This document shows, in pieces, positions 34,709 to 61,360 of a stretch of 64,000 bases of DNA. A program made the position numbers and the translations under genes. The DNA lies in NCBI RefSeq assembly GCF_001956295.1, contig NZ_MRTD01000011.1, positions 62,001 to 126,000 on the forward strand, written 5' to 3'. A model generated the notes under the pieces. That model was not told the origin of the DNA. It worked only from the letters and a program-made list of their open reading frames with translations, and did not search any database. Position 1 is the stretch's first letter. Every line of letters begins with the position of its first letter. The stretch is from Paenibacillus sp. FSL A5-0031. GTDB taxonomy: Bacteria > Bacillota > Bacilli > Paenibacillales > Paenibacillaceae.

Positions 34709-35015
34709 AAAACTGCTCCTTTTTCGTTTGATTAAGGTAACTCTAATCAATGATCAATATATTAACTTTAGCATGTAAATTATGACATTGCAATGTGGGT
34801 TATAAAACATTAATCAAGGTCCATTTGAATAACTGCCATTTGACTATACATAGCAATAAAAAAGATAGTAAATGAATGAAACCATTCTATAAGCTTTTTT
34901 TTGATTTGCTTGTGATGGATTAGGCGTGGGCGTTATGATATAATTTCTAATTGATATGTTCAAATGAATAAAAATAATTAATAATGGAAATTGCAGATAA
35001 AGGAAGTGAATCCCC

Positions 35016-35306
35016 ATGACGAAGGAGACCAAAAGCACACCAGACTTAAAATCTGGCACGGGTGTTAAGGACTACTCCAAGTATTTCGATTTTTCGGATG
35101 CAAAGATTTTACGAGAAGAAGATGGCATGACTACCGTTCGAATTAAAGGTCGGAATATACAAATCAACTCTGCTCCCAATCACAAGGATGAGAAGAAGCG
35201 TGGCAAAGAGGATATCGAGGTGCATTATGACTTTGCGATTCCTGCTGAGCTTCGATCGATGGGTATAGGCAAGTTTTATTTAATCCAAACGTATGGCTGT
35301 CCGTAA
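35016..35306 (+). pseudogene. miaB: Truncated native miaB 5' end left of the island
   Basis: Encodes the first ~95 residues of MiaB ([23 protein letters not shown], then KFYLIQTYGC) and stops two codons after the junction (CPstop). This is the host's own start; the rest of the gene lies past 60,048. It keeps an RBS (AAGGAAGTG) and a plausible promoter (TATGAT/TATAAT near 34,935-34,942), and its message is closed by a terminator at 35,345. The peptide lacks the Fe-S and radical SAM parts and cannot be an enzyme. Confidence 0.9.
35289..35302 (+). other. Left attachment junction (attL)
   Basis: The point where homology to MiaB ends: bases encoding T-Y-G-C. Compared with 60,041-60,053 the matching positions are ACnTAnGGnTGnC. 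Serine integrases need only a 2-bp identical core, so the exact crossover (GG or TG) cannot be fixed here. Confidence 0.7.
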
Positions 35307-35398: not shown

Positions 35399-37555
35399 AT
35401 GGTTGAGCACTTTTCATCGATTAGAAAGAGGAAGGAAAAGTCTAGTGCAGATAATTTAAAAAGTATTAGGAAAGCCGTAATCTACGTGCGGGTATCTGAT
35501 GTTAAGCAATTGGACGGTGTGTCATTGGATACACAAGAAAATGAGATACGAGCTTTCCTTAAAAATTCTGTGGATGAAAATGGTAAGCACATTACATATG
35601 AAGTGGATAAGGTCTTCCGTGAGGAGGGAAAGAGTGGTAAGGATCAATATCGCGATAAGTTTCAGGAAATGATTAAATATGTCCGTGATAATCGGAAGGA
35701 TATTGATGGGGTGTGCTTTTACGCCATTAGCCGTCTTGGACGTAATGTGAGAATGGTTCTGGATACTATAGATGACTTTAATAAATTGGATGTAACAGTG
35801 CTTTCTAAGTCAGATAGTTTAAACTCTAAAACAGCCAATGGCAGGTTTACCCTTACCATCCTATCGGCGCTTGCACAGCTTGAATCTGAGCAAATAGCTG
35901 AGAGGGTAATGCCCAACATGATTACTTCTGTAAGAGATTATGGTAGATGGCAGGGCGCTAGGTACGTTCCATATGGCTATAAACATGAGATAAATCCTGA
36001 GCTTCCTCCAAATGATGCAAATGCTAAGAAGAAGATGCTCTTGGTAGAACCAGATGAAGCAAGACAGGTCAAACAGATTTTTGAATGGTATTGTGACGGA
36101 ATCGGAAATGACTTGATTGTTGGCGAATATAAAATAGCCAAGCATCTTAATGAAATTGGATGGAAGTACCGAAAGGGGAAGGAATGGCAGCAGAGACAAA
36201 TTCAAAGCATTCTGAAGAACGGTCATCTATATACAGGATGGCTAGTCTGGAATAGGCACGGAACTGAAAACAAAATGGAAGAGATTGTCGATGATTATGG
36301 CATCGTTCGTGATAAGGAGGTAATGAAACCAACAAAGGAAGGCTACCTTAAGCCGGTTAAAGAGACATACCGGAAAGAAGATCACGAAATTATAATTGCT
36401 GAAGGAATTCATGAAGCAATTATATCGGAGGCGCTATGGGCAAAAGTAGTCGACCGACTTAATCAGCGTTCCCAAAAAGACACTAGTAAAATTGATACAT
36501 CTAGACAAGCAAAACACCTCTTCACACACGTATTAAAGTGTCCACAATGCCGCGGAACGATGGCAGCATCCACTCTTGATGGACAGGTATATTACAAGTG
36601 TCAGAAGGCAGCTAGAGGCGGTATGTGCAAGCACAACATGATACGAGAGGATTATATCAGGGAAACGATTCTGAATGTCGTATTAAGCCATTATGAGTCA
36701 TACATCTATAAGCGGTTCGATGAGATAGTAGGAAAAGAATCAAAGCGCGAAAAATATCAAACGGACGCTGAAGCACAACTTGCAGCACTTGATGTTAAGA
36801 TTGCTGGAGCAAATAAGCGTATGGCAGAAATTGTTCACGAATATCAGTCGGATTCCCCGAAAAAATTAATAAAAACTCGTGAGCAAGCTGAAAGTATTAT
36901 TAACCAAATTGATGGAGAACGAAGCCAGGTTCAAATGGAAATGGATGAGATTAAGAGTGAAATGCAAGAACGGCTTTGGGAAGAAAAAGAAGTCGAAGAT
37001 ATTGTGGAAAAGTTAAAGGGTTTCTCAGATATTCGAGTTTACTTCGACTCATTAACAACTGTTGGGCAAATGGACTTTGTTGACAGGTACGTTAAACGAA
37101 TCGAATATACCAAAGAGGAGGGGAAAAAAGGAGCTCATGCTTATGAAATTAAAAAAATCGTTCTAATGCCATTATTTTTTCCGTTATTTGATTTCGAAGA
37201 TAAGCGCTTTGTTGATTTTGTTAATAAGGGAAATGGAACCGAGGAAAAGAGTGTTAACGAGAAGATTAACGAAATTAATTTGAGGCAGTTGTCACATCAT
37301 GTAAGAACAGAAATTGGTGGCGTAATCGATCCGAATAAATCTAATTTGAAATCGGTTGCCAAAATAGTTGCACTTCAATCGAGTTTGCCGATTTACTATT
37401 TGAACGATGATGGTAAGGAGTATAGACCGAGTGCGCGCAAAAAATTTCAGGGGTTCATTAATGGAATGAATCCGAGTGCAAAACGAGAGTTGACTAAATT
37501 TCTTAAATCAAATTCAAGTGAACTTGTTCTCGATAAAGATGTTGATTCGCCATAA
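35399..37555 (+). CDS. Large serine recombinase (site-specific integrase)
   Basis: 718 residues. Catalytic resolvase domain ~24-180 with the nucleophile Ser33 in YVRVSDVKQ and the SRLGRNVRM arginine helix; recombinase domain (~200-320, VPYGYKHE); zinc ribbon with CPQC and a second Cys pair in KCQKAARGGMC (~380-410); then a coiled coil (~455-535) as in phiC31/Bxb1-type enzymes. It probably inserted the island into miaB. Located right inside attL, as integrase genes usually are. ATG after AGGGGGCG. No recombination directionality factor is recognisable. Confidence 0.95.
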   Translation: MVEHFSSIRKRKEKSSADNLKSIRKAVIYVRVSDVKQLDGVSLDTQENEIRAFLKNSVDENGKHITYEVDKVFREEGKSGKDQYRDKFQEMIKYVRDNRKDIDGVCFYAISRLGRNVRMVLDTIDDFNKLDVTVLSKSDSLNSKTANGRFTLTILSALAQLESEQIAERVMPNMITSVRDYGRWQGARYVPYGYKHEINPELPPNDANAKKKMLLVEPDEARQVKQIFEWYCDGIGNDLIVGEYKIAKHLNEIGWKYRKGKEWQQRQIQSILKNGHLYTGWLVWNRHGTENKMEEIVDDYGIVRDKEVMKPTKEGYLKPVKETYRKEDHEIIIAEGIHEAIISEALWAKVVDRLNQRSQKDTSKIDTSRQAKHLFTHVLKCPQCRGTMAASTLDGQVYYKCQKAARGGMCKHNMIREDYIRETILNVVLSHYESYIYKRFDEIVGKESKREKYQTDAEAQLAALDVKIAGANKRMAEIVHEYQSDSPKKLIKTREQAESIINQIDGERSQVQMEMDEIKSEMQERLWEEKEVEDIVEKLKGFSDIRVYFDSLTTVGQMDFVDRYVKRIEYTKEEGKKGAHAYEIKKIVLMPLFFPLFDFEDKRFVDFVNKGNGTEEKSVNEKINEINLRQLSHHVRTEIGGVIDPNKSNLKSVAKIVALQSSLPIYYLNDDGKEYRPSARKKFQGFINGMNPSAKRELTKFLKSNSSELVLDKDVDSP

Positions 37556-41276: not shown

Positions 41277-41309
41277 AAAGACCATCCTCTTTCATGCGTA
41301 GGCACAATA

Positions 41310-43548: not shown

Positions 43549-43690
43549 TGAGAGTTTGAACACATTCACTAAAGCAAGAGGCTGCGCCTCCCATTGTTAC
43601 AAACCTTACGTGCGTAAGGTTATACGTGGCATGGTAACCAAATTGTGTTCAAGAAAGAAGGAACTTACGCGTTCCTCTATAAATTAGTAT

Positions 43691-44164: not shown

Positions 44165-44304
44165 GATATGCATCCTCCATTTTTTATAGTTATCTTTGAT
44201 TAAACCACGAATCATAGATTAGCGGCGCACTTTACTCGTTATAAAACAGGTAAAGCTTGTCCGAAAAATAATCTCCGAACAAATTAAGCGATAATACGCC
44301 AGCA

Positions 44305-46058: not shown

Positions 46059-46085
46059 AAAGCCCTCTTTCAACAGGGCTTTTTT
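46059..46085 (+). terminator. Terminator upstream of the BREX-like operon
   Basis: AAAGCCCT / AGGGCTTT stem, then T run; insulates the defence operon from upstream genes. Confidence 0.85.
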
Positions 46086-46183
46086 ACTATGAAAGCAGGG
46101 AAGTATAAAGCTTTAGTCGAATAAATAAGGTTGCTGTCGTTTTATTTTTAGAACAAGATATTAATTTTGAGGAGAAATTGAAA

Positions 46184-49100
46184 ATGCTCAACAACGGTTT
46201 TATATCACAGACGTATCTTAAATTAGTTATATCTAAAATCAAAAATGAAATGATCAAAAATTCAATTGAAGGCATTCGTATGTTTTTTCAAGATGTAAAA
46301 ACATACGTAGATAAAAATAGCGATAAAGAAGAATATTCGTTAGAAGAGTATATTGATGATTTTATTATTTCTTATGTTGGGACATTTTTTAATTTTAATT
46401 CAATATCTGATAGTGTAAATAACTTTAAGCTCTATGCGGATTCCTTGAAAGAAAAGCCAATAGGTACTTTGGTAGCTCTTCACTACTCTGATGAAGTATC
46501 ATCGGAAGTCAAAGGGAAAAACTTCGGCTATACGGCTGTTCAATTAGCACGTAAAGAAAATGTTAGATGGGCTTTTCTAACAAACGGACTAATCTGGCGT
46601 ATTTATGATGTACAGTCTGTAAGTCCATATGAAACTTATTTGGAAATAAACTTAACTGATGTATTATTTGCTAAAACTGATATGAATGAAGACGCAAAAG
46701 CGTTTTCATTATTTTGTCAAGCTAAATCATACTTTTCTGTTACAAGTGAGGTTAAATCTCAAATTGAGATTCATTTCGAGAATAGCGAAAAAGAAATGGA
46801 AAAGCTTGAAAATGTTTTGAAGGGTAAAATCGAACAAATTGTAACAGATATAAGTTATGGTTTTATTCAAAGTATCGGAAAAGAACAGTATTCTGAGTTA
46901 GAACGCAGAAAAATTTTCGAGGACTCGATTATTTTATTATATCGTATGTTGTTTATACAATATGCGGAATCAAGATCCCTATTTCCTATGGAAAACGAAA
47001 CATATGTAAAGCAAAGTTTCGAATCGTTAGCTCAATCTGCCAGAGATTTATATAATTCAGGCGATTTGGTAAATTACGTTGATTCATATTCACTATGGAG
47101 AAAGCTGGATATATTGCGCGGCTATATTAATTCCGGATGGGATGATATAGATATGAAGGCATACAATGGTGGACTTTTCGATAATGAGTACCATGAGATT
47201 CTTAATGGTTATTCTATTTCTGACAGTTACTTTGCCGAAGTCTTATGCGGGCTCTCTTTCGTAAAAGACAAGAACGATGGATTTAAAGATCGTATTGAAT
47301 TCAAAGATTTATCTGTAAGGAGTTTGGGCAGTTTATATGAAGGCTTGCTTGAATTCAATCTATTTATTGCTGAAGAAGAATTAGTAAGAAGATCTTCGAA
47401 AGGGAAAGTTGTTTATATTCCGACCTCTGAAACAACAGTGAAACAAACAGAACGAAATAGTATTATTTCGAAAGGGAAGATCTACCTCTCCCAAGATGCA
47501 TTAGAACGTAAAGAAACCGGCAGTTATTATACACCAGAAGATGTTGTAAATTACATTATTGAAAATACGGTTGGTAAAAAATTAGAAGAAATTAGATCTC
47601 AATTCAATCAACTTTTGAAAAATGAACAAAGCAGATTGCTTACAGCAATCAATTTTTCGGAAACACAAGCGATTCATAACAGTATTGACCAAAATGTTCA
47701 TGAATTTATTCAAAAGAACATATTAACTCTAAGTGTTCTTGATAATTCAATGGGAAGCGGACACTTTCTAGTTAATACAACACATTATATTGCTAATTTT
47801 ATTATGGATTTAGTTCATTCGACTGAATGGGAAAGTGAATATCTGAATGGTGATCTCTCATACTGGAAAATACAAGTAGTAAGTCATTGTATATTCGGTA
47901 TTGATATTAATCCGCTAGCACTACATCTGGGCAAACTGTCTTTATGGCTTGTTTCTGCTGCAAAAAATAAGCCCTTATCATTTATGGATCACCATTTGAA
48001 AGTAGGAAATAGCTTAATCGGTATAGACAAGAGAAAGGTTCAACAGCAAATCAATGATTGGATGAACGGTGAATATGACATTTTTACAGCTTCCTATAAC
48101 AGCGTAATCGAAAATATACTTAACAAATACAATCTAATCTCACAAATGCCAGAAGAGACAAGAGACCAAGTGCATGCGAAAAAAGATCTTTATGATGAAA
48201 TTAATAGTGAAGTAGATCTTCTAAAGAAAAAATTCAATGTTTATTTAGGTATGTTACAGATAGATGGTAAAGTACACGATGAAACCTTCCTTAAGTTGTT
48301 AAACTATAATGATTCCGAATTTGATATTAATCTCGATGTGTATGAAGAATACCTGCTACATGCTCAACAGCAACAATATTTTCATTGGGATTTAGAGTTC
48401 CCTGATATTATGGAAAATGGTGGGTTTGATATAGTTATTGGTAATCCCCCTTACGTTGTTGTTACGGATACAAAACCATATAGGCAAAGTATTACCCAGA
48501 CTCTACAGACAAATAATTTATACTCTTATATGATGGAAAGAGCCCTTAAACATAGCAAAGGTGAAGGATACTTTGGTGTAATTGTTCCTATTTCATCAGT
48601 TGCTGGGAAAACTATGATTCCGCTCCAGAAACACTTGTTGTCCAGTATGAGTAAGTTGTATATAAGCAACTATTCAACTAGACCATCAAAATTATTTCAA
48701 AAAGTTGAGCAAAGATTGTCCATAATTATGGGGACGAAAGCTATTGATAACAAATCTGAGGTTGAACTGTATACCACTTCCTATATGAAGTGGTACTCTC
48801 ATGAAAGGAAGCAACTATTCACGGAAATGTTAAAATATTCTCGCTGTTATATTGAGATTGTCACGGATGGGATTATACCAAAACTTGGCAACGTAATTGA
48901 AAACAACATATTTCAAAAAATTAAATCTGTAAAAAATAATTTGGCGTCAATTACCGATAATGACGGAGAGATCTATCTTTACTATCATGGAACCCCTAGG
49001 TACTGGAATAAAGCTATGGATTATGTTCCTGGTTTCTACAGTGAAAAGCAAGGACATAAGCAATCAACAGAGTATAAGACTCTTTCCTTTAGTGACGAGT

Positions 49101-49498
49101 TAAAGAAAAGTGTATTTGGATGCATAGTGAATAGTGCTCTATTTTATTGGTGGTGGAATGTTGTTTCCGATTGTAGGCATCTAACGAAAAGGGATGTTAT
49201 GGATTTTAGCTTTAATTGGGACAGTCTTTCTCTAGAAATGATCAACAATTTAAGCAATGTATTCAATGAGTTAATGGATAATTTCAAGACAAATAAAAAG
49301 CAACTGATTATGAATCTTGGTGGGAACCTCGGTCAAGTAACTTTAGATTCCGTTGACCATCAGTTATCTAAGCCTATTATTGATAAGATAGATGGATTTA
49401 TTGCTGAGTATTATGGACTTAACGAAGAAGAGCTTTCTTTTATTATAAATTACGACTATCGGTTTAGAATGGGTGAAGAGGGTAATGAAAATGAGTAA
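46184..49498 (+). CDS. pglX: PglX-like N6-adenine DNA methyltransferase of a BREX-like operon
   Basis: 1104 residues from ATG 46184 (GAGGAG upstream; TTG 46178 possible). The N-terminal ~150 residues end in FLTNGLIWRIYD (~130-141), the pattern of type IIG/type I nuclease-like domains, but I see no convincing D-ExK catalytic set. Methyltransferase core: KETGSYYTPEDVV (~446), motif I DNSMGSGHFLV (~518-528) and motif IV GNPPY (Asn754). C-terminal ~300 residues should recognise the target. In BREX, PglX methylates host DNA to mark self. Overlaps the next gene by 8 bp. Confidence 0.85.
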   Translation: MLNNGFISQTYLKLVISKIKNEMIKNSIEGIRMFFQDVKTYVDKNSDKEEYSLEEYIDDFIISYVGTFFNFNSISDSVNNFKLYADSLKEKPIGTLVALHYSDEVSSEVKGKNFGYTAVQLARKENVRWAFLTNGLIWRIYDVQSVSPYETYLEINLTDVLFAKTDMNEDAKAFSLFCQAKSYFSVTSEVKSQIEIHFENSEKEMEKLENVLKGKIEQIVTDISYGFIQSIGKEQYSELERRKIFEDSIILLYRMLFIQYAESRSLFPMENETYVKQSFESLAQSARDLYNSGDLVNYVDSYSLWRKLDILRGYINSGWDDIDMKAYNGGLFDNEYHEILNGYSISDSYFAEVLCGLSFVKDKNDGFKDRIEFKDLSVRSLGSLYEGLLEFNLFIAEEELVRRSSKGKVVYIPTSETTVKQTERNSIISKGKIYLSQDALERKETGSYYTPEDVVNYIIENTVGKKLEEIRSQFNQLLKNEQSRLLTAINFSETQAIHNSIDQNVHEFIQKNILTLSVLDNSMGSGHFLVNTTHYIANFIMDLVHSTEWESEYLNGDLSYWKIQVVSHCIFGIDINPLALHLGKLSLWLVSAAKNKPLSFMDHHLKVGNSLIGIDKRKVQQQINDWMNGEYDIFTASYNSVIENILNKYNLISQMPEETRDQVHAKKDLYDEINSEVDLLKKKFNVYLGMLQIDGKVHDETFLKLLNYNDSEFDINLDVYEEYLLHAQQQQYFHWDLEFPDIMENGGFDIVIGNPPYVVVTDTKPYRQSITQTLQTNNLYSYMMERALKHSKGEGYFGVIVPISSVAGKTMIPLQKHLLSSMSKLYISNYSTRPSKLFQKVEQRLSIIMGTKAIDNKSEVELYTTSYMKWYSHERKQLFTEMLKYSRCYIEIVTDGIIPKLGNVIENNIFQKIKSVKNNLASITDNDGEIYLYYHGTPRYWNKAMDYVPGFYSEKQGHKQSTEYKTLSFSDELKKSVFGCIVNSALFYWWWNVVSDCRHLTKRDVMDFSFNWDSLSLEMINNLSNVFNELMDNFKTNKKQLIMNLGGNLGQVTLDSVDHQLSKPIIDKIDGFIAEYYGLNEEELSFIINYDYRFRMGEEGNENE

Positions 49499-50315
49499 AC
49501 CTAAACTTTATTTATCAGAAGGTTACCACATGAAATTTGACACTGTAGCTTCCTTGCTTCAACTGGTCAATGATTCTAATTTGCCAACCCACTCCAAAGA
49601 GTGGGTTACAAAGAACATGGGGGTATCGTCAAGAATGGTGAAGTGCATTGCGAATTATTGCAGCGCTACCGGATTATTAATACCAAAAGTTTATAAACCG
49701 ACTTTATTTGGTAAGCTTGTTAACGAATATGATCCATATGTTGGAGACAACGGTACACTTTGGTTAATGCATTATATTGCAGCTTCTAATCAAGAGTTGA
49801 TTATTTGGAATCGCTTATTTAATACAATTCTTCATGAAATGCCAACAGGTCATCAAAGTAATGAGTATTATCATTATTTTGATGATCTACATGAAACTTT
49901 TACACCCGCAACAATTAAAACAAATGTTCCAAGTGAGCTTAATAGCCTGCTTAATGCATACAGTGAACAACAATTTTCGAAACTAGGAATTATTGCGAAG
50001 ACTAACGATGGAGTTTATTCTTATAAAAATCAACCTATGTCCATTATCATATTTTATGCTTTAGTTTTGCTGTATAAAGAACGTAATTATCAAGGTGCAT
50101 CTACAATGGATGTTTCTTTTCTATGCAGTGAGTTCAACAGTCCAGGACGTGTTAGCTTATACTCTTCAATAAATATTAGACGGATGATTGAAGAACTGCA
50201 CAAAGTGAAATTGATACAATTGGAATCAAGAGCAGATCTAGATCAGATTCGTTTTGTTCATAATCATACGTTTCTTGATGGAGTTAAGATGTATTACAGA
50301 GGTAATCATGACTAA
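49491..50315 (+). CDS. DUF4007-like protein of the BREX-like operon
   Basis: 274 residues from ATG 49491. Contains LFGKLVNEYDPYVGDNGTLW (~80-99) followed by LMHYIA, which I recognise as DUF4007, a family I recall near PAPS-reductase-like and phosphorothioation/BREX-4 defence genes. N-terminal region looks winged-helix (WVTKNMGVSSRMVKCIANYC). Likely a DNA-binding or adaptor subunit. 8-bp overlaps on both sides show tight co-translation. Function inferred only. Confidence 0.65.
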   Translation: MSKPKLYLSEGYHMKFDTVASLLQLVNDSNLPTHSKEWVTKNMGVSSRMVKCIANYCSATGLLIPKVYKPTLFGKLVNEYDPYVGDNGTLWLMHYIAASNQELIIWNRLFNTILHEMPTGHQSNEYYHYFDDLHETFTPATIKTNVPSELNSLLNAYSEQQFSKLGIIAKTNDGVYSYKNQPMSIIIFYALVLLYKERNYQGASTMDVSFLCSEFNSPGRVSLYSSINIRRMIEELHKVKLIQLESRADLDQIRFVHNHTFLDGVKMYYRGNHD

Positions 50316-50793
50316 TTCAATACACCTTAACGACCTCGTCGAAGTTCAGAAAACAGAACGATATAAAGCGATTATTATCCTTGGGAATATTCATTCTTTA
50401 TCTCCTAATGTTGGAAGTGATATCGCTAGTGCACTAGAAGCGAAGTACATCTCGATCGTAGATGAGTTTGTACAAAATCAATTGCGTAATACATGTATTG
50501 ACACATTCGATCCTGATGATTTGAAAAATACGCTTAGGGAATTGGTAACACCAACAGAAGAAGTTGTAGTTTTAGAGGGCATTGATATGCTTTGGACTGT
50601 ATGGTCTACTTCAATGCGAAATCGATTTCTAAAAATGATTGAAATGAATACTATTTCACCGTATAGAGATACGGTCTTTATTTTTTTAATTCTTAAAGAC
50701 GATCAACTAATGAAATGTGACTGGAAAAACGATGCCCATCACTCACCTAGAGTGATGGATATTAACGAGATACTACTAGGAGGACCTCAATGA
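50308..50793 (+). CDS. Small BrxF-like P-loop-fold protein with degenerate Walker A
   Basis: 161 residues from ATG 50308. Strand order resembles a small P-loop ATPase: KAIIILGNIHS (where Walker A should be, but no GxxGKS), then VVVLEGIDMLW (Walker B position, LEGID) and TVFIFLILKDD. This is like BrxF of BREX type 3 with a lost nucleotide site. Start and stop overlap both neighbours (8 and 4 bp). The role may be structural within the ATPase complex; low certainty. Confidence 0.5.
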   Translation: MTNSIHLNDLVEVQKTERYKAIIILGNIHSLSPNVGSDIASALEAKYISIVDEFVQNQLRNTCIDTFDPDDLKNTLRELVTPTEEVVVLEGIDMLWTVWSTSMRNRFLKMIEMNTISPYRDTVFIFLILKDDQLMKCDWKNDAHHSPRVMDINEILLGGPQ

Positions 50794-53700
50794 TGAACAA
50801 AATCTCAAACATTATTGAAATAAAAAGCGCTTACTCTACTCAAGTAAATTTAAGGGAAGAATATGATGATTATAAAGTCAATTTAGAGCGTATGGAGCGT
50901 TATATGCCTATACGTTCCCATAGAGCAGCATTTGAGAAAATCACTAGAGCTCTACTAGAGCGTGACAGTAAAAGGTTTTTTCTGTTAACAGGTAGCTATG
51001 GTACCGGCAAGTCTCATCTAAGTTTAATGCTTGCAAATTATTTGACGCACCCTTCTACGGCACCAGAAATTGAAACTTTCTTCGAAAACTTTGCACATAT
51101 GTCAGAGCAAGATGGAGAATCCATAAATGACATTGACAAATGGAAAATCAAAAGAAAGAATGGTAAGTTTCTTGTCTGCATTTGTGATTATGACAGTGAT
51201 AATTCTTTCATGGAGATCATTCTTAAATCTATTATCACTGCATTGGAAAGAGAAGGAATTGATAGTGCTCAATTAGCTACTCCATATAGAGAAGCAGTTA
51301 GAAAAATCGAGGATTGGAAAAGATTCTCCAATGAAGGATTAAAAGACTTCTATTCCGATTTTGAACGTTCTTTAATGAGCAAACTGCCCGGAACAACTCC
51401 TAATCAATTTATTAAAGCTCTTGATAAGGATCTCGATTCAGAAAAATTAGTTATATTTAGACAAATTCATAAGGAAATCACTACAGTTGATTTCATGATG
51501 GATAAAAATAATTTGGTAGAGATTGTGAAGGATTTAGTACAAAGCCCTTTATTCTTGGAAAATTTTCAGGGGATTGCAATTTTATTCGATGAGTTTGATT
51601 ACATATTAAAAGAAAAACAACGTTTTGGTTCAAATTTGAATGTGTTCCAAGCTTTTGGAGAATATTGTTCTAAATCATTTATTAATGGTGCTCCTGTTTT
51701 TATGTTAGCTACGGGACATAGATCGTTTATCAGTTATAAGTCTCGATATAACGAAGATGATTTTTCTGTAGTTAACAATCGTGTAGAAGAAGTTTCTCTT
51801 AAAACAGAAGGATTCGAAGACATTATTTCTGCAATAGTAATCCCAAATAAAAACTCTGAATCATGGAAACAACTTATACGTCCAAACCGTCATGTTTTTG
51901 ATTCTCTAACGCAATCATGTAAAGAACATGAGATTTTTTCACACCTTTCTAGCTCAGGGAAAAAGCTTCGGGAGAAAATCATTGAAAATATTTATCCTAT
52001 GCACCCGATGGCTACTCATGTCCTACTTGAACTGTCGAAAGATATTGCGTCTAACAATCGTTCCGTATTTACATTTTTCACAAAAGCCTATCGTAACAGT
52101 AGTGAAGAAGGATCTTACAACTGGTATACTCATACACATAATATATTGGACGACAAAGGGAATCTGAATTTTTATACGGTAGACTACTTATTTCGGTACT
52201 TCAACCAATTAATTAGTTCTGATAATCTCGAACTTCCTGACAGTAAGAAATCCATAATCAGGAATTTTGAAGCATCCTTGAGGGAATGGAAAAAGGTTCA
52301 TGCCAAAGAGAAAACCCTAATTGTTGATGAAAATGAACTTTGGGCAGAGCGTATACTTCAAACTCTTGTTTTATATCATTTAGCGAATGTTGTACCTAAT
52401 GCTACTAATATTTTGTTTGGATTAAATGCTAATGCTAATTTATTCCCAGAGCTTGCTGCCAAGATTAAATCCATCCTGAGATATCTGGCAGATAGGCATA
52501 TTTTGTTTTACAACAAACAGTCTGATGCATATGAGTTTAAGAAAAATGATTTGATTGATATTGATGGATTAATCGAAGAGTATGTCTCTAAGGAAGAACA
52601 TTACAACTTTAATGTCGTAGATGAGTTTTCTCGTATTGGTAAAATTAGAGATCATTCTGAATTGTATCAACTTTTCCGAGACGACTTTTACTCGGGTAAG
52701 GCATACAATTTAGAATGGTCAGAAGATAAACGGTTTTTACGCGTCTTTACAACAGTTAAAGAGCTAGAAAGTAAGAATTTCTTTGAGAAAATTTCTAGAG
52801 CGATGTTTGAAGAACAAGATTTCACAAAATCATATGAAGGCGTTTCACTCATTGTAATCTGTGAGACATTAGATGAGAGGGATAAGGCAAGATCCCTATC
52901 AATGCATAATAAAAACTCACGAATACTAATAGGGGTTCCTAAAAATGATATTCCTGTGAAAGAACAAGTGGCTAGATATATTGCTCTGGAGAGTATATCT
53001 AGTTCAGCGATTTCAGAACAAGAATTCGCACTAGTTCAAGACAAGAAAAACTATCAGGCAAAACTTATCTCGGATCAACTGAAGCAATACTCCGACCAAA
53101 AAAATATTAATTGGACTGAAAAAGAAGGAAATGTTATTCCAATTTCCAAGGATGAGCATGCTTCTGTTAGCTATGTATTGCAAAAATTATTTGAAAATAA
53201 ACGCACAAGAATAAAGCACCCCGATCTAAATAAAAATCATAGTATTGAAAAAAATGGTCAGAACGCACTTAGAGATGCTGTCGATCGATTATTAAATTTT
53301 GAAAGTGATTTATCCTGGGATACTACTAAAGCACTAGACACTTCAGATATGAGGATTTTTAATAACGTATTAGCCGCGGCGGATGTCTTAGTGATATCAG
53401 AACAGAACAAGAACATGTGTAAAGGTAAACTCAATACTAAGTTTGCGTCGTATAAGGAAACGTTACCGGCTTTGGCTGCTATGTTTTTAGAAATTGAAAA
53501 CAAACAAAAAAATATTCCTTTTTCTAATTTCATAAAAATCGCGCAAGATTATGGAGTTGGTAGATATGCTTTCCTACTTTATTTTTCTATAATATTACGT
53601 TATTACGATAGTGCACTCTATTTGAAGTCAGCTCCTAATGCACCAGATAATCTAAAGATTAATTCCTTTTCAGATTTAGAAGATTTAATAGGTAAGAAGA

Positions 53701-54944
53701 AACATCCAAATGCAGTAATTGATATTTTACAGTTAACAGAGATTGAAAAAAAATTCGTAAATTCCATTTATCAAATATATGAGACAATACCTGTTAATAA
53801 GAACATTACAGTTGACCAATGTTATTCTCGATTAATGAAATGGTACGAAATGTTACCTAATGTTTCCAAGGTTGGTTCTATTTACTCGGACACACGTTTT
53901 CATAATCTGATTAATGTATTTTCAGGTATGAAAAATAGTTCAATGCCTTATTTTATTATATCTAAACTGCAAACAATAATTGGACGTGATGAGAATGACT
54001 TACTAAGTGACTCTGCTGTTGAAAGTGTTTTAGATTTCCTAAGATCAGCCAAAATAGAAATGCCTTATTCAAAGCAGAAAGTTTTGGATAGTATTTTTGA
54101 ACAAGTTACAAATCTCTTTAATCCAAGTTTTACTGGAAAGTATACTGAAGAAGAAACTAGGAAGAGCATAGTTAATTGGTATGATTCTCTTACTGAAATA
54201 CAGAAGGATACAAGTTTTCACAAGCATAGCCCTGATAGCAAAATAGTTATAAAGAATGCTGCCTCGTGTATCAATGCTGAACAAACCTTGGCAGTTGATA
54301 TGTCAGAACAGCTAGTACAACAAAAAGTGCTAGAATGGTCTACTGATAAGACCGCTGACCTGGCTCATAAAATTAAACATGCTAAGGTATATATTGAACA
54401 ATTTGTAGTTGATGTAGAAGATCCAATATTGGTTATTCCTGATGCCTGGATTAAAGTCCCCGAGGGCAATCAAGATGTTTACTATTTCCAAAAGGGTTCT
54501 ATAACAATTAAGAGTCCTAGTGAAAATTACACTGTACTATACACTGACGATGGAAGTAGCCCATTAAGTCCGGTAAGCAATCCTAAAGAGATAAAGAATG
54601 AGATAAACTTTACTCCATTGATTGATGAGTTCATCTTACAATTGGTTAGTGTTGACGATCAAAATAGAAATGGATTGATAAGAAAGTACAAATTTAGGGC
54701 GGGAAAATTAAGGTTTCAAGCTCGACCAATGATTAAAGAGCATCAAGCGGTAATGAATTTTGGATCTTCTTCTGTTGCAGCAGAATCTGAAGAGTCTATT
54801 ATGATTCCAAGTATTCCTTATGATAACAATTCTCTTGAGATATGCATCAATAGCATTATACAGACAGCAATAAATAAAAAGAACGTCACTAATACTGTAA
54901 TAAGAGAAACTTTATTAAATATGTTAAGCAGTTTGGAGGAATAA
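50790..54944 (+). CDS. brxC: BrxC/PglY-like giant ATPase
   Basis: 1384 residues. Walker A TGSYGTGKSH at ~67-76, Walker B IAILFDEFD at ~262-270, then long helical regions. Near the C-terminus (~1240-1262) VLYTDDGSSPLSP is the chitobiase/hexosaminidase C-terminal beta-sandwich motif, which I do not expect in BrxC. It is the core ATPase of BREX-type systems and usually the largest product of the operon. ATGA overlap with the gene before; one base before PglZ. Confidence 0.8.
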   Translation: MMNKISNIIEIKSAYSTQVNLREEYDDYKVNLERMERYMPIRSHRAAFEKITRALLERDSKRFFLLTGSYGTGKSHLSLMLANYLTHPSTAPEIETFFENFAHMSEQDGESINDIDKWKIKRKNGKFLVCICDYDSDNSFMEIILKSIITALEREGIDSAQLATPYREAVRKIEDWKRFSNEGLKDFYSDFERSLMSKLPGTTPNQFIKALDKDLDSEKLVIFRQIHKEITTVDFMMDKNNLVEIVKDLVQSPLFLENFQGIAILFDEFDYILKEKQRFGSNLNVFQAFGEYCSKSFINGAPVFMLATGHRSFISYKSRYNEDDFSVVNNRVEEVSLKTEGFEDIISAIVIPNKNSESWKQLIRPNRHVFDSLTQSCKEHEIFSHLSSSGKKLREKIIENIYPMHPMATHVLLELSKDIASNNRSVFTFFTKAYRNSSEEGSYNWYTHTHNILDDKGNLNFYTVDYLFRYFNQLISSDNLELPDSKKSIIRNFEASLREWKKVHAKEKTLIVDENELWAERILQTLVLYHLANVVPNATNILFGLNANANLFPELAAKIKSILRYLADRHILFYNKQSDAYEFKKNDLIDIDGLIEEYVSKEEHYNFNVVDEFSRIGKIRDHSELYQLFRDDFYSGKAYNLEWSEDKRFLRVFTTVKELESKNFFEKISRAMFEEQDFTKSYEGVSLIVICETLDERDKARSLSMHNKNSRILIGVPKNDIPVKEQVARYIALESISSSAISEQEFALVQDKKNYQAKLISDQLKQYSDQKNINWTEKEGNVIPISKDEHASVSYVLQKLFENKRTRIKHPDLNKNHSIEKNGQNALRDAVDRLLNFESDLSWDTTKALDTSDMRIFNNVLAAADVLVISEQNKNMCKGKLNTKFASYKETLPALAAMFLEIENKQKNIPFSNFIKIAQDYGVGRYAFLLYFSIILRYYDSALYLKSAPNAPDNLKINSFSDLEDLIGKKKHPNAVIDILQLTEIEKKFVNSIYQIYETIPVNKNITVDQCYSRLMKWYEMLPNVSKVGSIYSDTRFHNLINVFSGMKNSSMPYFIISKLQTIIGRDENDLLSDSAVESVLDFLRSAKIEMPYSKQKVLDSIFEQVTNLFNPSFTGKYTEEETRKSIVNWYDSLTEIQKDTSFHKHSPDSKIVIKNAASCINAEQTLAVDMSEQLVQQKVLEWSTDKTADLAHKIKHAKVYIEQFVVDVEDPILVIPDAWIKVPEGNQDVYYFQKGSITIKSPSENYTVLYTDDGSSPLSPVSNPKEIKNEINFTPLIDEFILQLVSVDDQNRNGLIRKYKFRAGKLRFQARPMIKEHQAVMNFGSSSVAAESEESIMIPSIPYDNNSLEICINSIIQTAINKKNVTNTVIRETLLNMLSSLEE

Positions 54945-57275
54945 GTGTTGAGCGGCATACAAATTTTTGCCGATCCAAATAGGCATCTATCTGATTCCAT
55001 GTTAATTTTCAGTAAGATTTCTGATTATCCAAAACTGTACCACACAGTTCGAGAAATGTTAGCAAATAACATCAGCCGCTCGGATATCATTGTTCAAAAC
55101 CAGCAGCTCTTATCATGGCTTAGAGAATTAAACAACTTTGAACCTAATGATATGTTAACGTTTCGTGAAATGACTTTAAGACAGTTTGTTACTAACACTT
55201 GGGGGATTATTCCCCCTTCTTATCTTCTAGATGATGATTTGAAAGAAATTCTAGATATTTTTCCAGTTCTGAAGGATCAAAGTGATTTTGAGAAAAGCGT
55301 ATTGGAACATTATTTTCTTTTCTCTTTTGATTTCACTGAGTTAACGTTAACAACGTTAGAAAAAATCTGCAATGAGGCAAAGTTTGCTGATTATAGAAAC
55401 AAGTCACAACTTAAATGTATAAAATTGATTCTCGATCATCAAAAGGAAAAGGCTTTAAAGTATAATAAAAATATTTCGATATTAATTGAGATTCTGTTTG
55501 AATCGCCTGAAAAATTCATAAAAATAGTGTCAAGCTTTGCTGTTTTGAAAGGTTATACAAACGAGCTTAGAAACAGATTTTTAGAAGGATATATTTACGA
55601 ACTTTCAAGTTTGAGCATTAAGCAATTTTATCCGAATACCAACACTCTTCCTATAGAAATAACAAATGCTATTAGAGTTGAATTAAATAGTTTATTAACC
55701 AGCGCTTCAACCTTAGATGAAGTAGCTGAAATAATTCGATGCACAAGCGGGATATTAGAAAGCGAGTTTGAGACGCTGGTTGAGTTTATCAACTCTCAGA
55801 TACATTTCGATCGTAATAAATTGATTGTAGTAGTTAAATCACACTTTATACGGTTATTGACAAGAAAACCAGAACTATCAACTGAATTAGATTTACTTTT
55901 TTCCCCCGATTTCCCGTCGGCACCTAACTTTGAAGATGCAAAAACATGGTTTGAATGGGCGGAGAATGAATATCTTCCATATCGGCGTTGGCAAGAAACA
56001 CGTAAAGAAAATAATGAACTACTGGATTCTTATGGTATCCTGTTTTCTGACTGGATTGCGAAAAATTACTTCGAAATTAAATATTCTTATCCTAATACTG
56101 TCATGAATTTGTTACCTAATATAAAACAAAAGATTGACCAACAATCTTTCACTTTATTATTAATCATTGATAATATCGGATTACGCTGGAACAATCACCT
56201 TATCAATTTGTTTAAGAAAAACAGCATTAATTTACTACAAAAAGAGAACCTTATTGCTGCTATCCCTACCGAAACTAGGATTTCAAAAACAGCATTACTC
56301 TCGGCAAATTATACATTTTCAAAAAATGAACAAGACTATCGGAAGCTGATTGAACAAAAAACTAGTGAGCAATTCCAAAACAAACAGTTGTTTTATACAA
56401 CAAAGGTGTCTGATTTAAAACAGCTACCGGAAGATGTCAACTTTGCAATTCTAAATTATTTGATGATTGATGAATACATGCATATGGATCAGAATAAAAT
56501 GGCAAGTCCCAAATTAGAGGTTATTTCCAATGAGCTGAACGGTTTAGTTGATTTGGTATGCAAGAGTCTGGCTTATAGACCTCAAATAGATATCTATGTG
56601 GTATCCGACCATGGCTCTGTAAAAATTTCTAATGACAAAGTAATAAACGTTGATGATATATTTTTAGGAGATAAAATTATTGAAGGTACGGAGCGGTATA
56701 TCTGTGTATCAGATGAACAATTAAATCGTTTCCGCAGCAAACTTGAAACAATTGGTTATATCTTTGAGAGAATTCGATATAATCTTGATGCAAACTATGT
56801 GATATTAAAAGGTTACAATTCATTCAGGAAGAACACGGCAGATCAATATCTGCATGGTGGAGTATCTCCAGAAGAAATTCTAGTACCATTACTACATTTT
56901 CATAGATCAACTCACACCGTAATACCACCAAATGTACTTATAAGGGATAACACATTTAGATTTAACGTAAAGAGTCAATTATTATTGCTTATTGAGAATA
57001 CAAATCAAATTCCTGTTCAAAATTTGCAACTTACGATATTAAGTCCTTTCGTTTCTGTCGATAATGATATCTTAATCGTGGAAAAGATTGATTCAATGAC
57101 TAAAATTGATGTCAATATTGAGAATGTCCGAATCATGCGTAAGGGGAGTATTGTTCCGACTGAACTGTCTATTAGCATTCAATATGACTTTGCTTCAAAA
57201 CAGTATAGTTCTGAGATCAAATTGCCAATTGTAATTAAATCAATGCAAGAGAATACGTTTGATTTTGATTTTTAA
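54945..57275 (+). CDS. pglZ: PglZ-domain protein (BREX phosphatase-like)
   Basis: 776 residues; GTG 54945 or TTG 54948 after GGAGGAATAA. The PglZ (alkaline-phosphatase fold) core lies in the middle: LLIIDNIGLRW (~402-412), IDEYMHMDQNKM (~507) and the metal motif VVSDHGSVKI (~550-559). N-terminal ~330 residues are helical; C-terminal ~120 look like a beta-sandwich. PglZ is the defining protein of BREX/Pgl defence. The first motif lacks the arginine-tyrosine often seen after the Asp. Confidence 0.85.
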   Translation: MLSGIQIFADPNRHLSDSMLIFSKISDYPKLYHTVREMLANNISRSDIIVQNQQLLSWLRELNNFEPNDMLTFREMTLRQFVTNTWGIIPPSYLLDDDLKEILDIFPVLKDQSDFEKSVLEHYFLFSFDFTELTLTTLEKICNEAKFADYRNKSQLKCIKLILDHQKEKALKYNKNISILIEILFESPEKFIKIVSSFAVLKGYTNELRNRFLEGYIYELSSLSIKQFYPNTNTLPIEITNAIRVELNSLLTSASTLDEVAEIIRCTSGILESEFETLVEFINSQIHFDRNKLIVVVKSHFIRLLTRKPELSTELDLLFSPDFPSAPNFEDAKTWFEWAENEYLPYRRWQETRKENNELLDSYGILFSDWIAKNYFEIKYSYPNTVMNLLPNIKQKIDQQSFTLLLIIDNIGLRWNNHLINLFKKNSINLLQKENLIAAIPTETRISKTALLSANYTFSKNEQDYRKLIEQKTSEQFQNKQLFYTTKVSDLKQLPEDVNFAILNYLMIDEYMHMDQNKMASPKLEVISNELNGLVDLVCKSLAYRPQIDIYVVSDHGSVKISNDKVINVDDIFLGDKIIEGTERYICVSDEQLNRFRSKLETIGYIFERIRYNLDANYVILKGYNSFRKNTADQYLHGGVSPEEILVPLLHFHRSTHTVIPPNVLIRDNTFRFNVKSQLLLLIENTNQIPVQNLQLTILSPFVSVDNDILIVEKIDSMTKIDVNIENVRIMRKGSIVPTELSISIQYDFASKQYSSEIKLPIVIKSMQENTFDFDF

Positions 57276-57287
57276 GGGGGGATTGCA

Positions 57288-58706
57288 ATGCTCGAACAAT
57301 TTGAACAAAAAGCCCTAGACAATTATGGAGAAGTTGTAATTAATAAGAATCTGGTACATCAGGCTGGTTTTACAGCACGTTCAATTCCCACCTATGTAGG
57401 AGAATGGATACTATTTAATTTCCTAGAAGAAGGTATACTGACTGATGATTCAAGAAAAAAGATAGCTGATTTTATAAATAAATTTCTACCCCAGAAAGCA
57501 CAAAAGGAACAAATTAAAAACCAATTATTGAATATGGAAAGCGTGAAGTTACTTGACGATTATAGTGTTTCTGTTAATTTAAAGACAGGCAACAGGAATT
57601 TGCGAATTCCATTTTTGGACATCAATGATGCGATGATCTCTCCACAAATAGTGGAAGATAATGATTTAATGCTAGCGAGTGGAGTCTGGGGAGTTGGGGA
57701 GTTGTTCTACGCTCCGCCAGATAGTGAAAATAATCGTGGAAGTGTAATACTCCGATCGTTCAAACCATTCCAAATCAATGCTGTTGATTTAGACTATTTT
57801 ATTGAATGCCGTGAGCAATTTACATTTGATGAATGGATAAATCTTATAATATCAAGCATGGGTTTTAATCCTGGCATATACACACTCGAACAAAAAATGA
57901 TTTTAATTACAAGGATTGTTCCCTTTGTTGAGCCTCGTGTCAATCTAATTGAACTTGCACCTAAAGGAACTGGTAAATCATACGTGTATGATAATTTTTC
58001 GAGATATGCTCGTGTTGTGCGCGGTGGGAAAGTCAGCCCTGCTGTAATGTTTTTTCATCAAACCAAGAATACACCTGGCTTAATAGCTAAATATGATGCT
58101 GTTGTGCTTGATGAGATTCAGAGTATACAAGCAGATCCCGAACTGGCTGCTGGTCTAAAAACATATTTAGAGAGTGGGAAGTTCAGCCGTGGGAATACGG
58201 AAGCTACTTCCGAAGCAGGATTTGTAATGCTTGGGAACGTTGCACTCGATGAAAATCGAAACCCGCTTTATCTAGAAGAGGGCATTTTGAAAGAAATACC
58301 TAACTTTTTGCAAGAAACAGCATTTATTGACCGATTACATGGAATTATCCCTGGATGGCAAATGCCCAGAGTGTCTAATGATACTCCTTCGAAAACACTT
58401 GGGTTCAAAGGAGATTTCTTTTCTGAGATACTTCATAATTTGCGTGGTAAAGTGGACTACTCCGATTTTGTAAGTGGTTATATGCATTTAACAAATTGTA
58501 AGGATTTACGGGACTATAAAGCGATTCAGAGACTTGCGACTGGCTTCCTCAAAATCATTTTCCCTGATATGAAAGTCAGTAATGAAGACTTCATTGCACA
58601 CTGCTTAAAACCGGCTGTTGAATTACGCCAGAGGGTCAGAGATGAACTGCATAAGATGGATCCTGAGTATAAAAAAATAAAAATTGAAATTAGTAAAGCC
58701 GATTAG
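57288..58706 (+). CDS. brxL: BrxL-like AAA+ ATPase (short, ~470-residue form)
   Basis: 472 residues from ATG after AAGGGGGG. Walker A LAPKGTGKSYV at ~222-232, Walker B AVVLDEIQS at ~271-279 and the downstream GNVALDEN sensor region. Longer BrxL proteins carry a Lon-like C-terminus; this one ends before it, which matches the ~470-residue family I remember as 'Lon-related' next to PglZ genes. BrxL acts as a DNA-binding motor in BREX immunity. Last gene of the operon, followed by a terminator. Confidence 0.8.
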   Translation: MLEQFEQKALDNYGEVVINKNLVHQAGFTARSIPTYVGEWILFNFLEEGILTDDSRKKIADFINKFLPQKAQKEQIKNQLLNMESVKLLDDYSVSVNLKTGNRNLRIPFLDINDAMISPQIVEDNDLMLASGVWGVGELFYAPPDSENNRGSVILRSFKPFQINAVDLDYFIECREQFTFDEWINLIISSMGFNPGIYTLEQKMILITRIVPFVEPRVNLIELAPKGTGKSYVYDNFSRYARVVRGGKVSPAVMFFHQTKNTPGLIAKYDAVVLDEIQSIQADPELAAGLKTYLESGKFSRGNTEATSEAGFVMLGNVALDENRNPLYLEEGILKEIPNFLQETAFIDRLHGIIPGWQMPRVSNDTPSKTLGFKGDFFSEILHNLRGKVDYSDFVSGYMHLTNCKDLRDYKAIQRLATGFLKIIFPDMKVSNEDFIAHCLKPAVELRQRVRDELHKMDPEYKKIKIEISKAD

Positions 58707-59689: not shown

Positions 59690-59749
59690 TTTATATTGGG
59701 TTAAAAAAATAATGAGTTATATTTTAGATAGAGGGAAGTGATTTTTAAC

Positions 59750-61360
59750 ATGTCAAAGGAGAACCAAAATACATCGGACTTAAAATCCGACAAGGTTAAG
59801 GATTACTCCAAATACTTTGACTTTTCGGATGCGAAGATCCTAAGTCAAGAAGACGGTAAAACAACTTACCGTATCAAAGGTCGCAATGTCCAAATAAATT
59901 CAACTCCAAATCATAGGGACGAAAAGAAGCGGGGTAAAGAAGATATTCAGGTATTGACGTTCGAAGATGCCAAAACAGAAGAAATTATAGAAATGTTCAG
60001 AGAAATGAACCGTAAAAAGCAACATTATTATGCAATAAAGACTTACGGATGCCAAATGAACGAGCATGACACCGAAGTCATGAAGGGCATGTTCGAAGAA
60101 ATGGGTTATACAGCTACGGAGGATCGAAATCTTGCAGATGTAATCTTACTTAATACATGTGCCATTCGTGAGAATGCCGAAGATAAAGTGTTTGGCGAGC
60201 TTGGCCATTTGAAAGCGCTGAAGACGGAGAAACCGGATTTGCTGTTAGGTGTTTGTGGCTGTATGTCGCAGGAAGAATCGGTTGTAGGACGTATTTTGCA
60301 AAAGCATTCTTTTGTAGATATGATCTTTGGTACGCATAACATTCATAGACTTCCGTACTTGCTGCAAAATGCTTATTTCAGTAAGGAACTGGTCGTTGAG
60401 GTATGGTCCAAGGAAGGCGATATTATCGAAAATATGCCTAAGAAACGCGAAGGAATGCGAGCTTGGGTTAATATTATGTACGGATGCGATAAGTTTTGTA
60501 CGTATTGCATCGTGCCATATACACGCGGGAAAGAGCGCAGCAGACGTCCAGAAGATGTCATTGCTGAAGTGCGCGACTTAGCTAGACGAGGATTTAAAGA
60601 AATTACATTGCTTGGGCAAAATGTTAATGCTTATGGCAAGGATTTTGAAGACATCAACTATCGCTTTGGCGATTTGATGCATGATATGTCCAAAATTGAC
60701 ATTCCGCGTATCCGCTTTATGACGAGCCATCCGCGTGATTTTGACGATCATTTGATTGAGGTGCTTGGAACAGGCGGCAATTTGGTTGAGCATATTCATT
60801 TGCCTGTTCAGTCCGGCAGCACCGAAATATTGAAACGAATGAGCCGCAAGTATACTCGCGAGATGTATCTAGAGCTGGTTGCTAAAATTAAAAAAGCAAT
60901 ACCGGGTGCGATGCTCACTTCAGATATAATCGTCGGTTTCCCTGGTGAAACAGACGAGCAGTTTGAGGATACGATGACGCTGGTGAAAGAAGTTGGCTTT
61001 GATTCGGCTTATACTTTCCTTTATTCTCCGCGTGAGGGTACACCTGCCGCTAGTATGGAAGATAATGTTCCGCTAGAGGTGAAAAAAGCTCGTTTACAGC
61101 GTCTCAATGCACAGCTAGCTGCAAATGCGAGAGAAAAAAATGAGCAGCTTCGCGGCGAAATTGTCGAGGTTCTCATTGAAGGCGAAAGCAAAAACAACGC
61201 TAATGTCCTTTCCGGACGGACGCGTACGAATAAATTAGTGCATTTGGAAGGTCCAAAGGAATGGGTTGGCCAGTTTATTATGGCTAAGGTTACCGAGGCA
61301 CAAACTTGGTATATCAAAGCCGAAAGTATAGAACAGGATGCACAAGAAGCCGTTAGCTAA
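59750..61360 (+). CDS. miaB: tRNA-2-methylthio-N6-dimethylallyladenosine synthase, island-host chimera
   Basis: Radical SAM methylthiotransferase for A37 of tRNAs. ATG 59750 with GAGGGAAGTG upstream gives 536 residues. UPF0004 domain with the Fe-S cysteines in [24 protein letters not shown] and VCGCMSQEE; radical SAM triad [12 protein letters not shown]-terminal TRAM domain. The first ~100 codons come from the island and differ from the native stub at 35,016, most strongly over ~70-95; the rest is host sequence. Followed by ricA. Confidence 0.93.
60041..60053 (+). other. Right attachment junction (attR)
   Basis: Codons for T-Y-G-C where island-encoded miaB meets the native remainder. Matches attL (35,289-35,302) at ACnTAnGGnTGnC. 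Confidence 0.7.

What the first reader, a model, noticed from the sequence alone, without database searches (positions are those of the whole stretch)
46184..58706. BREX-like operon with a gene set outside the standard BREX types
Seen: six tightly overlapping genes encoding a PglX-like methyltransferase, a DUF4007-like protein, a small BrxF-like protein, a giant BrxC-like ATPase, PglZ and a ~470-residue BrxL. Known: type 1 is BrxA-BrxB-BrxC-PglX-PglZ-BrxL; type 4 is BrxP-BrxC-PglZ-BrxL; BrxF belongs to type 3. Here there is no BrxA, BrxB or BrxP, the methyltransferase comes first and DUF4007 is present. Inference: a hybrid in which a DNA methyltransferase replaces BrxP of a type-4-like core, swapping the type of self mark.
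Basis: partly seen in the sequence, partly recalled or inferred. Interest (0 to 1): 0.9.

Follow-up and report, generated by a model that had tools for sequence, protein, structure and literature searches.

The report
Methylating variant of type-4 BREX
A six-gene bacterial anti-phage operon pairs the machinery of a sulfur-marking defence system (type-4 BREX) with a DNA-methylating enzyme in place of the sulfur enzyme, and the same combination recurs in distantly related microbes, so it looks like a distinct branch of BREX.

Summary
In detail: six intact, abutting genes at 46184-58706 encode an Eco57I/IIG-type DNA methyltransferase (MT), DUF4007, a BrxF-like AAA+ protein, an SspC/BrxC-like ATPase, PglZ and a short BrxL. 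It is a lineage, not a one-off hybrid. BrxC searches gave 48 loci. Of the 21 with at least 5 kb held on both sides of BrxC, MT is in 21, BrxL 21, PglZ 20, DUF4007 18, the BrxF-like protein 17, and the PAPS-reductase motif in 0. Of 53 comparison loci (mostly Ssp and type-4 BREX) PAPS-type profiles match 49 and the MT profile 0. BrxC, PglZ, BrxL and DUF4007 each form one clade apart from the typed sets used, which lack type 2. MT divergence tracks BrxC (r 0.94). Six of 16 carrier genomes searched have no PAPS-reductase domain. A 2026 survey says type 4 lacks the methyltransferase entirely. Best reading: a methyl-marked relative of PT-marked type-4 BREX, with PglZ as the likely nuclease. Function is untested; the direction of the swap and the relation to type 3 are unresolved.

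The parts
46184..49498 (+). DNA methyltransferase (MT), N6-adenine type by motif: degenerate nuclease-like N-domain, BrxX/PglX-like helical domain, Eco57I methylase core, C-terminal specificity region (inferred)
   Evidence: DNSMGSGHF, NPPY; no D..ExK set conserved in 28 aligned MTs; residues 26-200 align to HsdR, DrdV, BpuSI; 206-439 to BrxX 8zek Z 9.3
49491..50315 (+). DUF4007 / SspB-like protein (BrxA counterpart by PMC12839542)
50308..50793 (+). BrxF-like small AAA+ protein; Walker A degenerate in this copy
50790..54944 (+). BrxC/SspC-like ATPase, Walker A GSYGTGKS
54945..57275 (+). PglZ; predicted metal-dependent nuclease, T444 and H637 align with E. fergusonii PglZ T538 and H741
57288..58706 (+). 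BrxL, short form (472 aa) without C-terminal extension, as in type 4
46059..46082 (+). intrinsic-terminator-like hairpin upstream of the operon
35399..37555 (+). large serine recombinase at the left end of the integrated element that carries the operon
   Evidence: Resolvase, Recombinase, Zn_ribbon_recom
35015..35299 (+). left remnant of the host miaB 5' end, cut at the codons for YGC
59738..61360 (+). miaB with an element-borne 5' end (right junction of the element near 60050)

Best explanation
A BREX defence system of a distinct lineage close to type 4 in which N6-adenine methylation, not phosphorothioation, is the self mark. Proposed mechanism: the MT methylates an adenine of an asymmetric site in host DNA, with BrxC, DUF4007 and the BrxF-like protein forming the DNA-scanning assembly that licenses it. 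On unmodified invading DNA the same assembly does not find the mark and engages BrxL (ATP-dependent ring on DNA) and PglZ (metal-dependent nuclease), and phage replication stops. Shown here: gene set, intact motifs, co-inheritance, purifying selection, exclusion of PAPS reductase. Inferred: methylation, its site, the mark's role, and the action of PglZ and BrxL (from work on type 1).
For: Of the 21 loci with enough flank MT is in 21 and the PAPS motif in 0. PAPS-type profiles (seeded from the comparators themselves) match 49 of 53 comparators; in the 48 loci only the fused BrxP profile matches anything, two DUF4007 proteins. The MT profile matches 0 of 53 comparators. Six of 16 carrier genomes searched, among them the complete Pelolinea chromosome, have no PAPS_reduct match. 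BrxC, PglZ, BrxL and DUF4007 are each one clade in quick trees (SH-aLRT 100, 89, 99, 98). BrxL joined to type 1 is rejected, p-AU 5.6e-5. MT and BrxC distances correlate at r 0.94 over 24 loci. NPP[YFW] is in 34 of the 35 MT ORFs (35 include L057, a duplicate of L024, and pieces of split genes; the one without is the upstream piece of L097); the motif I pattern is in 28 of 35. The PglZ catalytic T and H are kept in 30 of 30 aligned rows, 24 of them of this lineage; T538A abolishes nuclease activity in E. fergusonii PglZ (PMC12205998, passages). dN/dS 0.02-0.14.
Against: No methylation or phage data exist. 12 of 48 loci show no MT: L058, L079, L084-L087, L090 and L096 hold under 2 kb upstream of BrxC; L063 and L093 hold 3-4 kb; L100 holds 7 kb and L098 10 kb upstream of a BrxC fragment, without MT. 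The MTs are not one clade: helicase-linked MTases from plasmids fall among them. Most member loci are metagenome bins. The deep order is weak: joining the lineage to type 3 is not rejected for BrxC (p-AU 0.58, likelihood even 3.15 higher) and only marginally for PglZ (p 0.043). A wider PP-loop pattern finds one 403-aa ORF (SGGLDS) two genes past BrxL in P. macerans; no PAPS-type profile matches it.
Confidence: 0.75

Rival explanations
1. It is a divergent type-3 BREX: BrxF, BrxC, a methyltransferase and PglZ are part of the type-3 set, with DUF4007 standing for BrxA and BrxL for the helicase BrxHII.
For: PglZ matches NCBIfam BREX_PglZ_3 best (E 1e-16; 18 of 24 members match it). The small protein matches type-3 BrxF. 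A BrxC tree joining the lineage to type 3 is not rejected.
Against: No helicase in the operon, and the MT does not join PglXI. BrxL is said to be absent from type 3 (PMC12839542 section 19). DUF4007 and BrxC profiles point to SspB/SspC. PglZ joined to type 3 is marginally rejected (p-AU 0.043); it scores 60 bits against a cut-off of 250, and 17 of 24 members also match PglZ_4.
Confidence: 0.17
2. It is ordinary type-4 BREX whose PAPS reductase was lost or lies elsewhere in the genome, and the MT is a passenger restriction-modification gene.
For: The core is type-4-like; a recent survey found PAPS reductase in only 406 of 457 type-4 taxa.
Against: MT in 21 of 21 loci with enough flank, distances tracking BrxC, 6 of 16 carrier genomes searched without any PAPS_reduct match. 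In the window's genome the three PAPS_reduct matches are on other contigs.
Confidence: 0.06
3. The MT is itself a type IIG restriction enzyme and the BREX genes only assist it.
For: Best profiles are IIG, and residues 26-200 align to the nuclease domains of HsdR, DrdV and BpuSI (Z 8.0-9.6).
Against: Across 28 MTs no D..ExK set is conserved in that domain; PglZ keeps its metal-site residues.
Confidence: 0.04

Closest known systems
Type-4 BREX (BrxP/SspD-DUF4007, BrxC/SspC, PglZ, BrxL)
   Same: DUF4007, SspC-like BrxC, PglZ, short BrxL of about 475 aa; plasmid loci L023 and L136 have the order DUF4007-small protein-BrxC-PglZ-BrxL and are in the nearest group by BrxC (85) and PglZ (83)
   Different: No PAPS reductase in the operon and a DNA methyltransferase instead. 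The small protein of L023 was not matched by the BrxF-like profile; that of L103 was, E 5e-4
Type-3 BREX (BrxF, BrxC, PglXI, BrxHII, PglZ, BrxA)
   Same: BrxF-like small protein, a methyltransferase, PglZ profile
   Different: No BrxHII, MT of another branch, DUF4007 instead of BrxA, BrxL present
Type-1 BREX (BrxA, BrxB, BrxC, PglX, PglZ, BrxL)
   Same: N6-adenine-type methyltransferase, PglZ, BrxL; MT residues 206-439 align to BrxX
   Different: No DUF1819/DUF1788 proteins among those scanned; BrxL not with type 1 (p-AU 5.6e-5)
Ssp (SspBCD) phosphorothioation
   Same: SspB and SspC homologues
   Different: No SspD; PglZ and BrxL added
DISARM class 1 methyltransferase DrmMI / type IIG enzymes
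   Same: MT family
   Different: No DrmA, DrmB or DrmC call among the six proteins in the rows shown (25 of 31 rows shown for the MT)

Membership tests
BREX (any type) | PglZ and BrxC homologues in one operon | tested here: met
   PglZ metal-site residues kept
[quoted passage not shown]
   motif in 0 of 21 loci with flank; PAPS-type profiles find none in the 48 loci apart from two DUF4007 matches
Type-4 BREX | DUF4007 | tested here: met
Type-4 BREX | short BrxL grouping with type 4 | tested here: met
   472 aa; grouped with type-4 rows against type 1 at 99; 22 of 32 BrxL of the lineage are 657-702 aa
Type-4 BREX | PglZ recognised by NCBIfam BREX_PglZ_4 | tested here: not met
   no match in the window protein; 17 of 24 members match, best E 6e-14. 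The PT-type locus L023 is also under the cut-off (20 bits against 140), so this feature is a weak criterion
Type-3 BREX | BrxF | tested here: met
   (probability 91, E 1e-6; three BrxF rows)
Type-3 BREX | PglXI methyltransferase and BrxHII helicase | tested here: not met
   no helicase in the operon; MT apart from PglXI
Type-3 BREX | BrxC and PglZ inside type 3 | tested here: inconclusive
   p 0.58; p 0.043
Type-1 BREX | BrxA and BrxB genes; BrxL of type 1 | tested here: not met
   no such families among the eight proteins scanned
Ssp | SspD PAPS reductase | tested here: not met
Type IIG restriction enzyme | intact PD-(D/E)XK nuclease site | tested here: not met
   fold kept, no catalytic set conserved in 28 MTs
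BREX-Related Capture (BRC) system | HerA/FtsK translocase | tested here: not met
   none among the proteins scanned; definition read in PMC12839542 section 36
Type-2 BREX | PglW, BrxHI, BrxD and place in the trees | not tested
any BREX | phage protection and host DNA mark | not testable with these tools
   needs experiment

The most novel reading that the evidence does not exclude
The DUF4007-small AAA+-BrxC-PglZ-BrxL set is a restriction core that does not depend on the chemistry of the mark: one lineage pairs it with SspBCD phosphorothioation (L023, L136, with two separate ATPase-DUF4007 sets), its sister pairs it with an adenine methyltransferase. It would be a seventh BREX type and the BREX mirror image of the Dnd systems that carry methylases.
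Probability: 0.55. Interest if true: 0.82.

Novelty: new variant of a known kind. Interest (0 to 1): 0.72.

Why it matters
A 2026 BREX survey states that type 4 lacks a methyltransferase entirely; this lineage has a type-4-like core with one, in loci from many phyla. Because similar cores occur with a backbone mark or a base mark, it allows a direct test of an open question: how BREX reads the mark. Swapping MT for SspBCD on one core would show whether BrxC, PglZ and BrxL sense the chemistry or only whether the modification enzyme is satisfied.

Tried and rejected
The viral-contig scans with the BrxC protein and the BrxC alignment found no relative. Phage records gave 3 weak partial matches, not followed. 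The Annamia plasmid (L137) has PglZ and BrxL, but its BrxC is in pieces and no PAPS-type match lies in the stretch held; it was kept among the comparators. That the 718-aa ORF upstream of the P. macerans operon is the window's recombinase was tested and is wrong (no similarity). My first PAPS motif missed Ssp loci of Paenibacillaceae, whose PP-loop reads SGGA[GS]S, so I repeated the test with profiles. The Foldseek search with the MT N-domain had no match under E 0.001; only the VIA re-alignment supports the fold. Solved structures of BrxB or BrxF did not appear among the small protein's matches, which excludes nothing. The AU test that all type-4 BrxC rows are one clade did not finish.

Counts, choices and dropped rows: lineage membership was set by BrxC similarity, not by the MT. 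In one search, 83 stretches were confirmed, 80 kept, 79 loci; L057 is the same locus as L024 and was dropped. I drew the line by eye at the drop in identity between L102 and L103, so L058-L102 plus window, L020 and L024 make 48; the short match L133 (41% over 48 residues) was left with the comparators. 23 of the 48 were put in the BrxC tree, all in one clade; the PglZ, BrxL and DUF4007 trees hold 19 each and the MT tree 21 (L057, L066, L068, L072, L073, L077, L089 and L101 left out). L124, a near copy of L123, was left out of the trees. For BrxF I first aligned five proteins, saw that the two from L157 and L160 were not BrxF, and used three. PAPS-type profiles were seeded from the comparators, so their 49 of 53 is partly built in; their silence in the 48 is not. 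Trees are 'quick' with SH-aLRT only and lack type 2.

Literature: seven searches listed no description of this gene set. Subscription papers and preprints are mostly not held. The 2015 paper that defined the types and the paper on phosphorothioation by BREX type 4 were not held, and supplements were not read; the survey's 51 type-4 taxa without PAPS reductase could include this lineage. PMC12839542 was read in its outline, sections 12, 19, 25 (part 1 of 2), 28, 33, 34 and 36 and passages (sections 29 and 30 on two BR types were not read); PMC12205998, PMC10164562, PMC10853773, PMC12707154 and PMC8713573 in passages; other papers in listings only. The six-type gene lists given under Closest known systems are partly recalled.
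Full report
What is there. Six abutting + strand genes at 46184-58706 encode, in order, a DNA methyltransferase (MT), DUF4007, a 161-aa protein, a 1384-aa ATPase, PglZ and a 472-aa BrxL. Profiles identify MT as an Eco57I/IIG/DrmMI-type methylase, DUF4007 as SspB-like, the ATPase as SspC-like before BrxC-like, and PglZ and BrxL as such. MT, DUF4007, PglZ and BrxL pass Pfam cut-offs; only BrxL passes an NCBIfam cut-off. The closest named relative found, Paenibacillus macerans MER 50.2, has the same six genes; dN/dS is 0.02-0.14 with no internal stops.

The small protein. No library names it. Its 23-row alignment gives a confident model (pLDDT 88.7) that aligns to AAA+ domains (NSF D2 Z 9.0), and profile comparison with three type-3 BrxF proteins gives probability 91, E 1e-6. 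In the window the Walker A loop is degenerate. The motif search prints an intact GK[ST] for 10 of the 29 members listed, and L063 and L095 show one that the pattern missed. So the BrxF-like protein may be an active P-loop NTPase in some members.

The methyltransferase. Motif I (DNSMGSGHF) and motif IV (NPPY) are intact. A model of residues 1-440 (pLDDT 86.6) shows a restriction-nuclease-like domain at 26-200 (HsdR 3h1t Z 9.6, rmsd 3.0, 113 aligned; BpuSI 3s1s Z 8.0) and a helical domain at 206-439 like BrxX/PglX (8zek Z 9.3, rmsd 5.5, 162 aligned; 8c45 Z 8.6). In 28 aligned MTs no D..ExK set is conserved in the first domain, so the nuclease appears dead and the protein should only modify.

A recurrent lineage. 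One scan of the genome collection with the BrxC profile gave 79 loci. With the window, an Abditibacteriota plasmid and P. macerans, 48 belong to this BrxC lineage by similarity. In the 21 with at least 5 kb on both sides of BrxC: MT 21, BrxL 21, PglZ 20, DUF4007 18, BrxF-like 17, PAPS motif 0. Three layouts occur: MT-DUF4007-BrxF-BrxC-PglZ-BrxL (window, P. macerans, two Clostridium, Rubrobacter, Abditibacteriota, Chloroflexota bins, with an extra ORF in L091); DUF4007-BrxF-BrxC-MT-PglZ-BrxL (Anaerolineaceae); DUF4007-BrxF-MT-...-BrxC-PglZ-BrxL (mostly deltaproteobacterial bins, also acidobacterial and planctomycete). L058-L102 carry 16 named phyla, most as metagenome bins; isolates include Clostridium, Leptolinea and Pelolinea. 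Within the window's family it is rare: full-length matches in 2 of 295 genomes, the window's own among them. 12 of 48 loci show no MT; most hold little upstream sequence, but L098 (10 kb) and L100 (7 kb) do not.

Exclusion of the marks. PAPS-type profiles match 49 of 53 comparator loci, from which they were seeded, and in the 48 only two DUF4007 proteins through the fused BrxP profile. The MT profile matches 0 of 53. A wider PP-loop pattern finds one 403-aa ORF in the P. macerans flank, which no PAPS-type profile matches. Of 16 carrier genomes searched (16 of 48), 6 have no PAPS_reduct match at E 0.001, one of them complete (Pelolinea); the 14 control genomes all have one. In the window's genome the three matches are on other contigs. 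MT distances follow BrxC distances (r 0.94, 24 loci, 0 of 2000 permutations), nearly as well as PglZ does (0.97, 22 loci). Shared organismal descent could add to this correlation.

Trees. BrxC: 23 of 23 lineage rows in one clade (100), nearest to three type-4-like rows from loci that also hold an SspC (L023, L136, L110; 85). PglZ: one clade (89), nearest to L023, L136 and L137 (83). BrxL: one clade (99), with type 4 against type 1 (99); type 1 membership rejected (p 5.6e-5), type 4 as one clade not rejected (p 0.082). DUF4007: one clade (98). Against a clean story: holding BrxC with type 3 is not rejected and scores 3.15 log units better; for PglZ it is marginally rejected; the MTs of the lineage are not one clade.

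Intermediate anatomy. On the Pseudanabaena and Thermomicrobium plasmids a DUF4007 (SspB)-SspC-PAPS reductase set stands beside a second DUF4007-small protein-BrxC-PglZ-BrxL set and a cysteine desulfurase. L103 has a similar double arrangement up to PglZ, and its small protein matches the BrxF-like profile (E 5e-4); that of L023 does not. This suggests two modules, a marking one and a restricting one, and the window's lineage has the second with a methylase.

Mechanism. Shown: gene set, motifs, conservation, exclusion. Inferred: host methylation at an asymmetric site and restriction of unmarked DNA. PglZ of type 1 is a metal-dependent nuclease inactivated by T538A (PMC12205998, passages); the window's T444 and H637 align with T538 and H741 in 30 of 30 rows, 24 of this lineage. 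BrxL of type 1 is an ATP-dependent DNA-binding ring (PMC10164562, passages).

Setting. The operon lies in an integrated element. The relatives G686 and G192 (L180, L182) have miaB uninterrupted, whereas in the window miaB sequence breaks off at 35299, next to a large serine recombinase, and the host-like sequence resumes near 60050, with a substitute miaB 5' end supplied from 59738. The P. macerans copy shares only 46076-58690 with the window (81.6%), so the operon seems to move as a unit between carriers.

Known or new. PMC12839542 (2026) reports for 457 type-4 taxa PAPS reductase in 89%, DUF4007 97%, BrxL 96%, and says that the MTase is entirely absent there; it also mentions Dnd systems whose PT genes are replaced by cytosine methylases, a parallel. 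The BR overview, type-3 BR and BRC sections describe no such set; sections on type-1 and type-2 BR were not read. My seven searches listed no other description; their limits are in Tried and rejected. I rate it a new variant of BREX, plausibly a seventh type.

Noticed in passing
window 35299-60050: The operon sits in an element of about 24.8 kb with a large serine recombinase, inserted in miaB at the codons for YGC; the element brings a substitute miaB 5' end, leaving a cut remnant at 35015-35299.
   Followed up: partly
window 38156-44215 (- strand): Same element: DnaB-like helicase, IstB-like ATPase, a phage-integrase-like ORF and a RadC-like JAB protein.
   Followed up: no
L023, L136, L103: Loci with two ATPase-DUF4007 sets, SspBCD-like for marking and DUF4007-small protein-BrxC-PglZ for restriction; L023 and L136 are in the nearest group to the window's lineage in the BrxC and PglZ trees.
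   Followed up: partly
L020 26-1732; L095 1688-4663; L103 1930-5085: A protein annotated RpoD stands directly before the L020 cassette; larger ORFs with similarity to it stand before the cassettes of L095 and L103.
   Followed up: no
L025, L032, L036: SspD of Paenibacillaceae Ssp loci reads SGGAGS or SGGASS at the PP-loop in the three shown, not SGGKDS.
   Followed up: partly
BrxL of L066-L083, L088, L089, L092 and others: 22 of 32 BrxL proteins of the lineage are 657-702 aa, with an extension that the window's 472-aa form lacks.
   Followed up: no
L170 6279-12692: The Synechocystis pSYSX relative of the MT lies with a helicase and near a multiubiquitin/E2/ThiF set.
   Followed up: no
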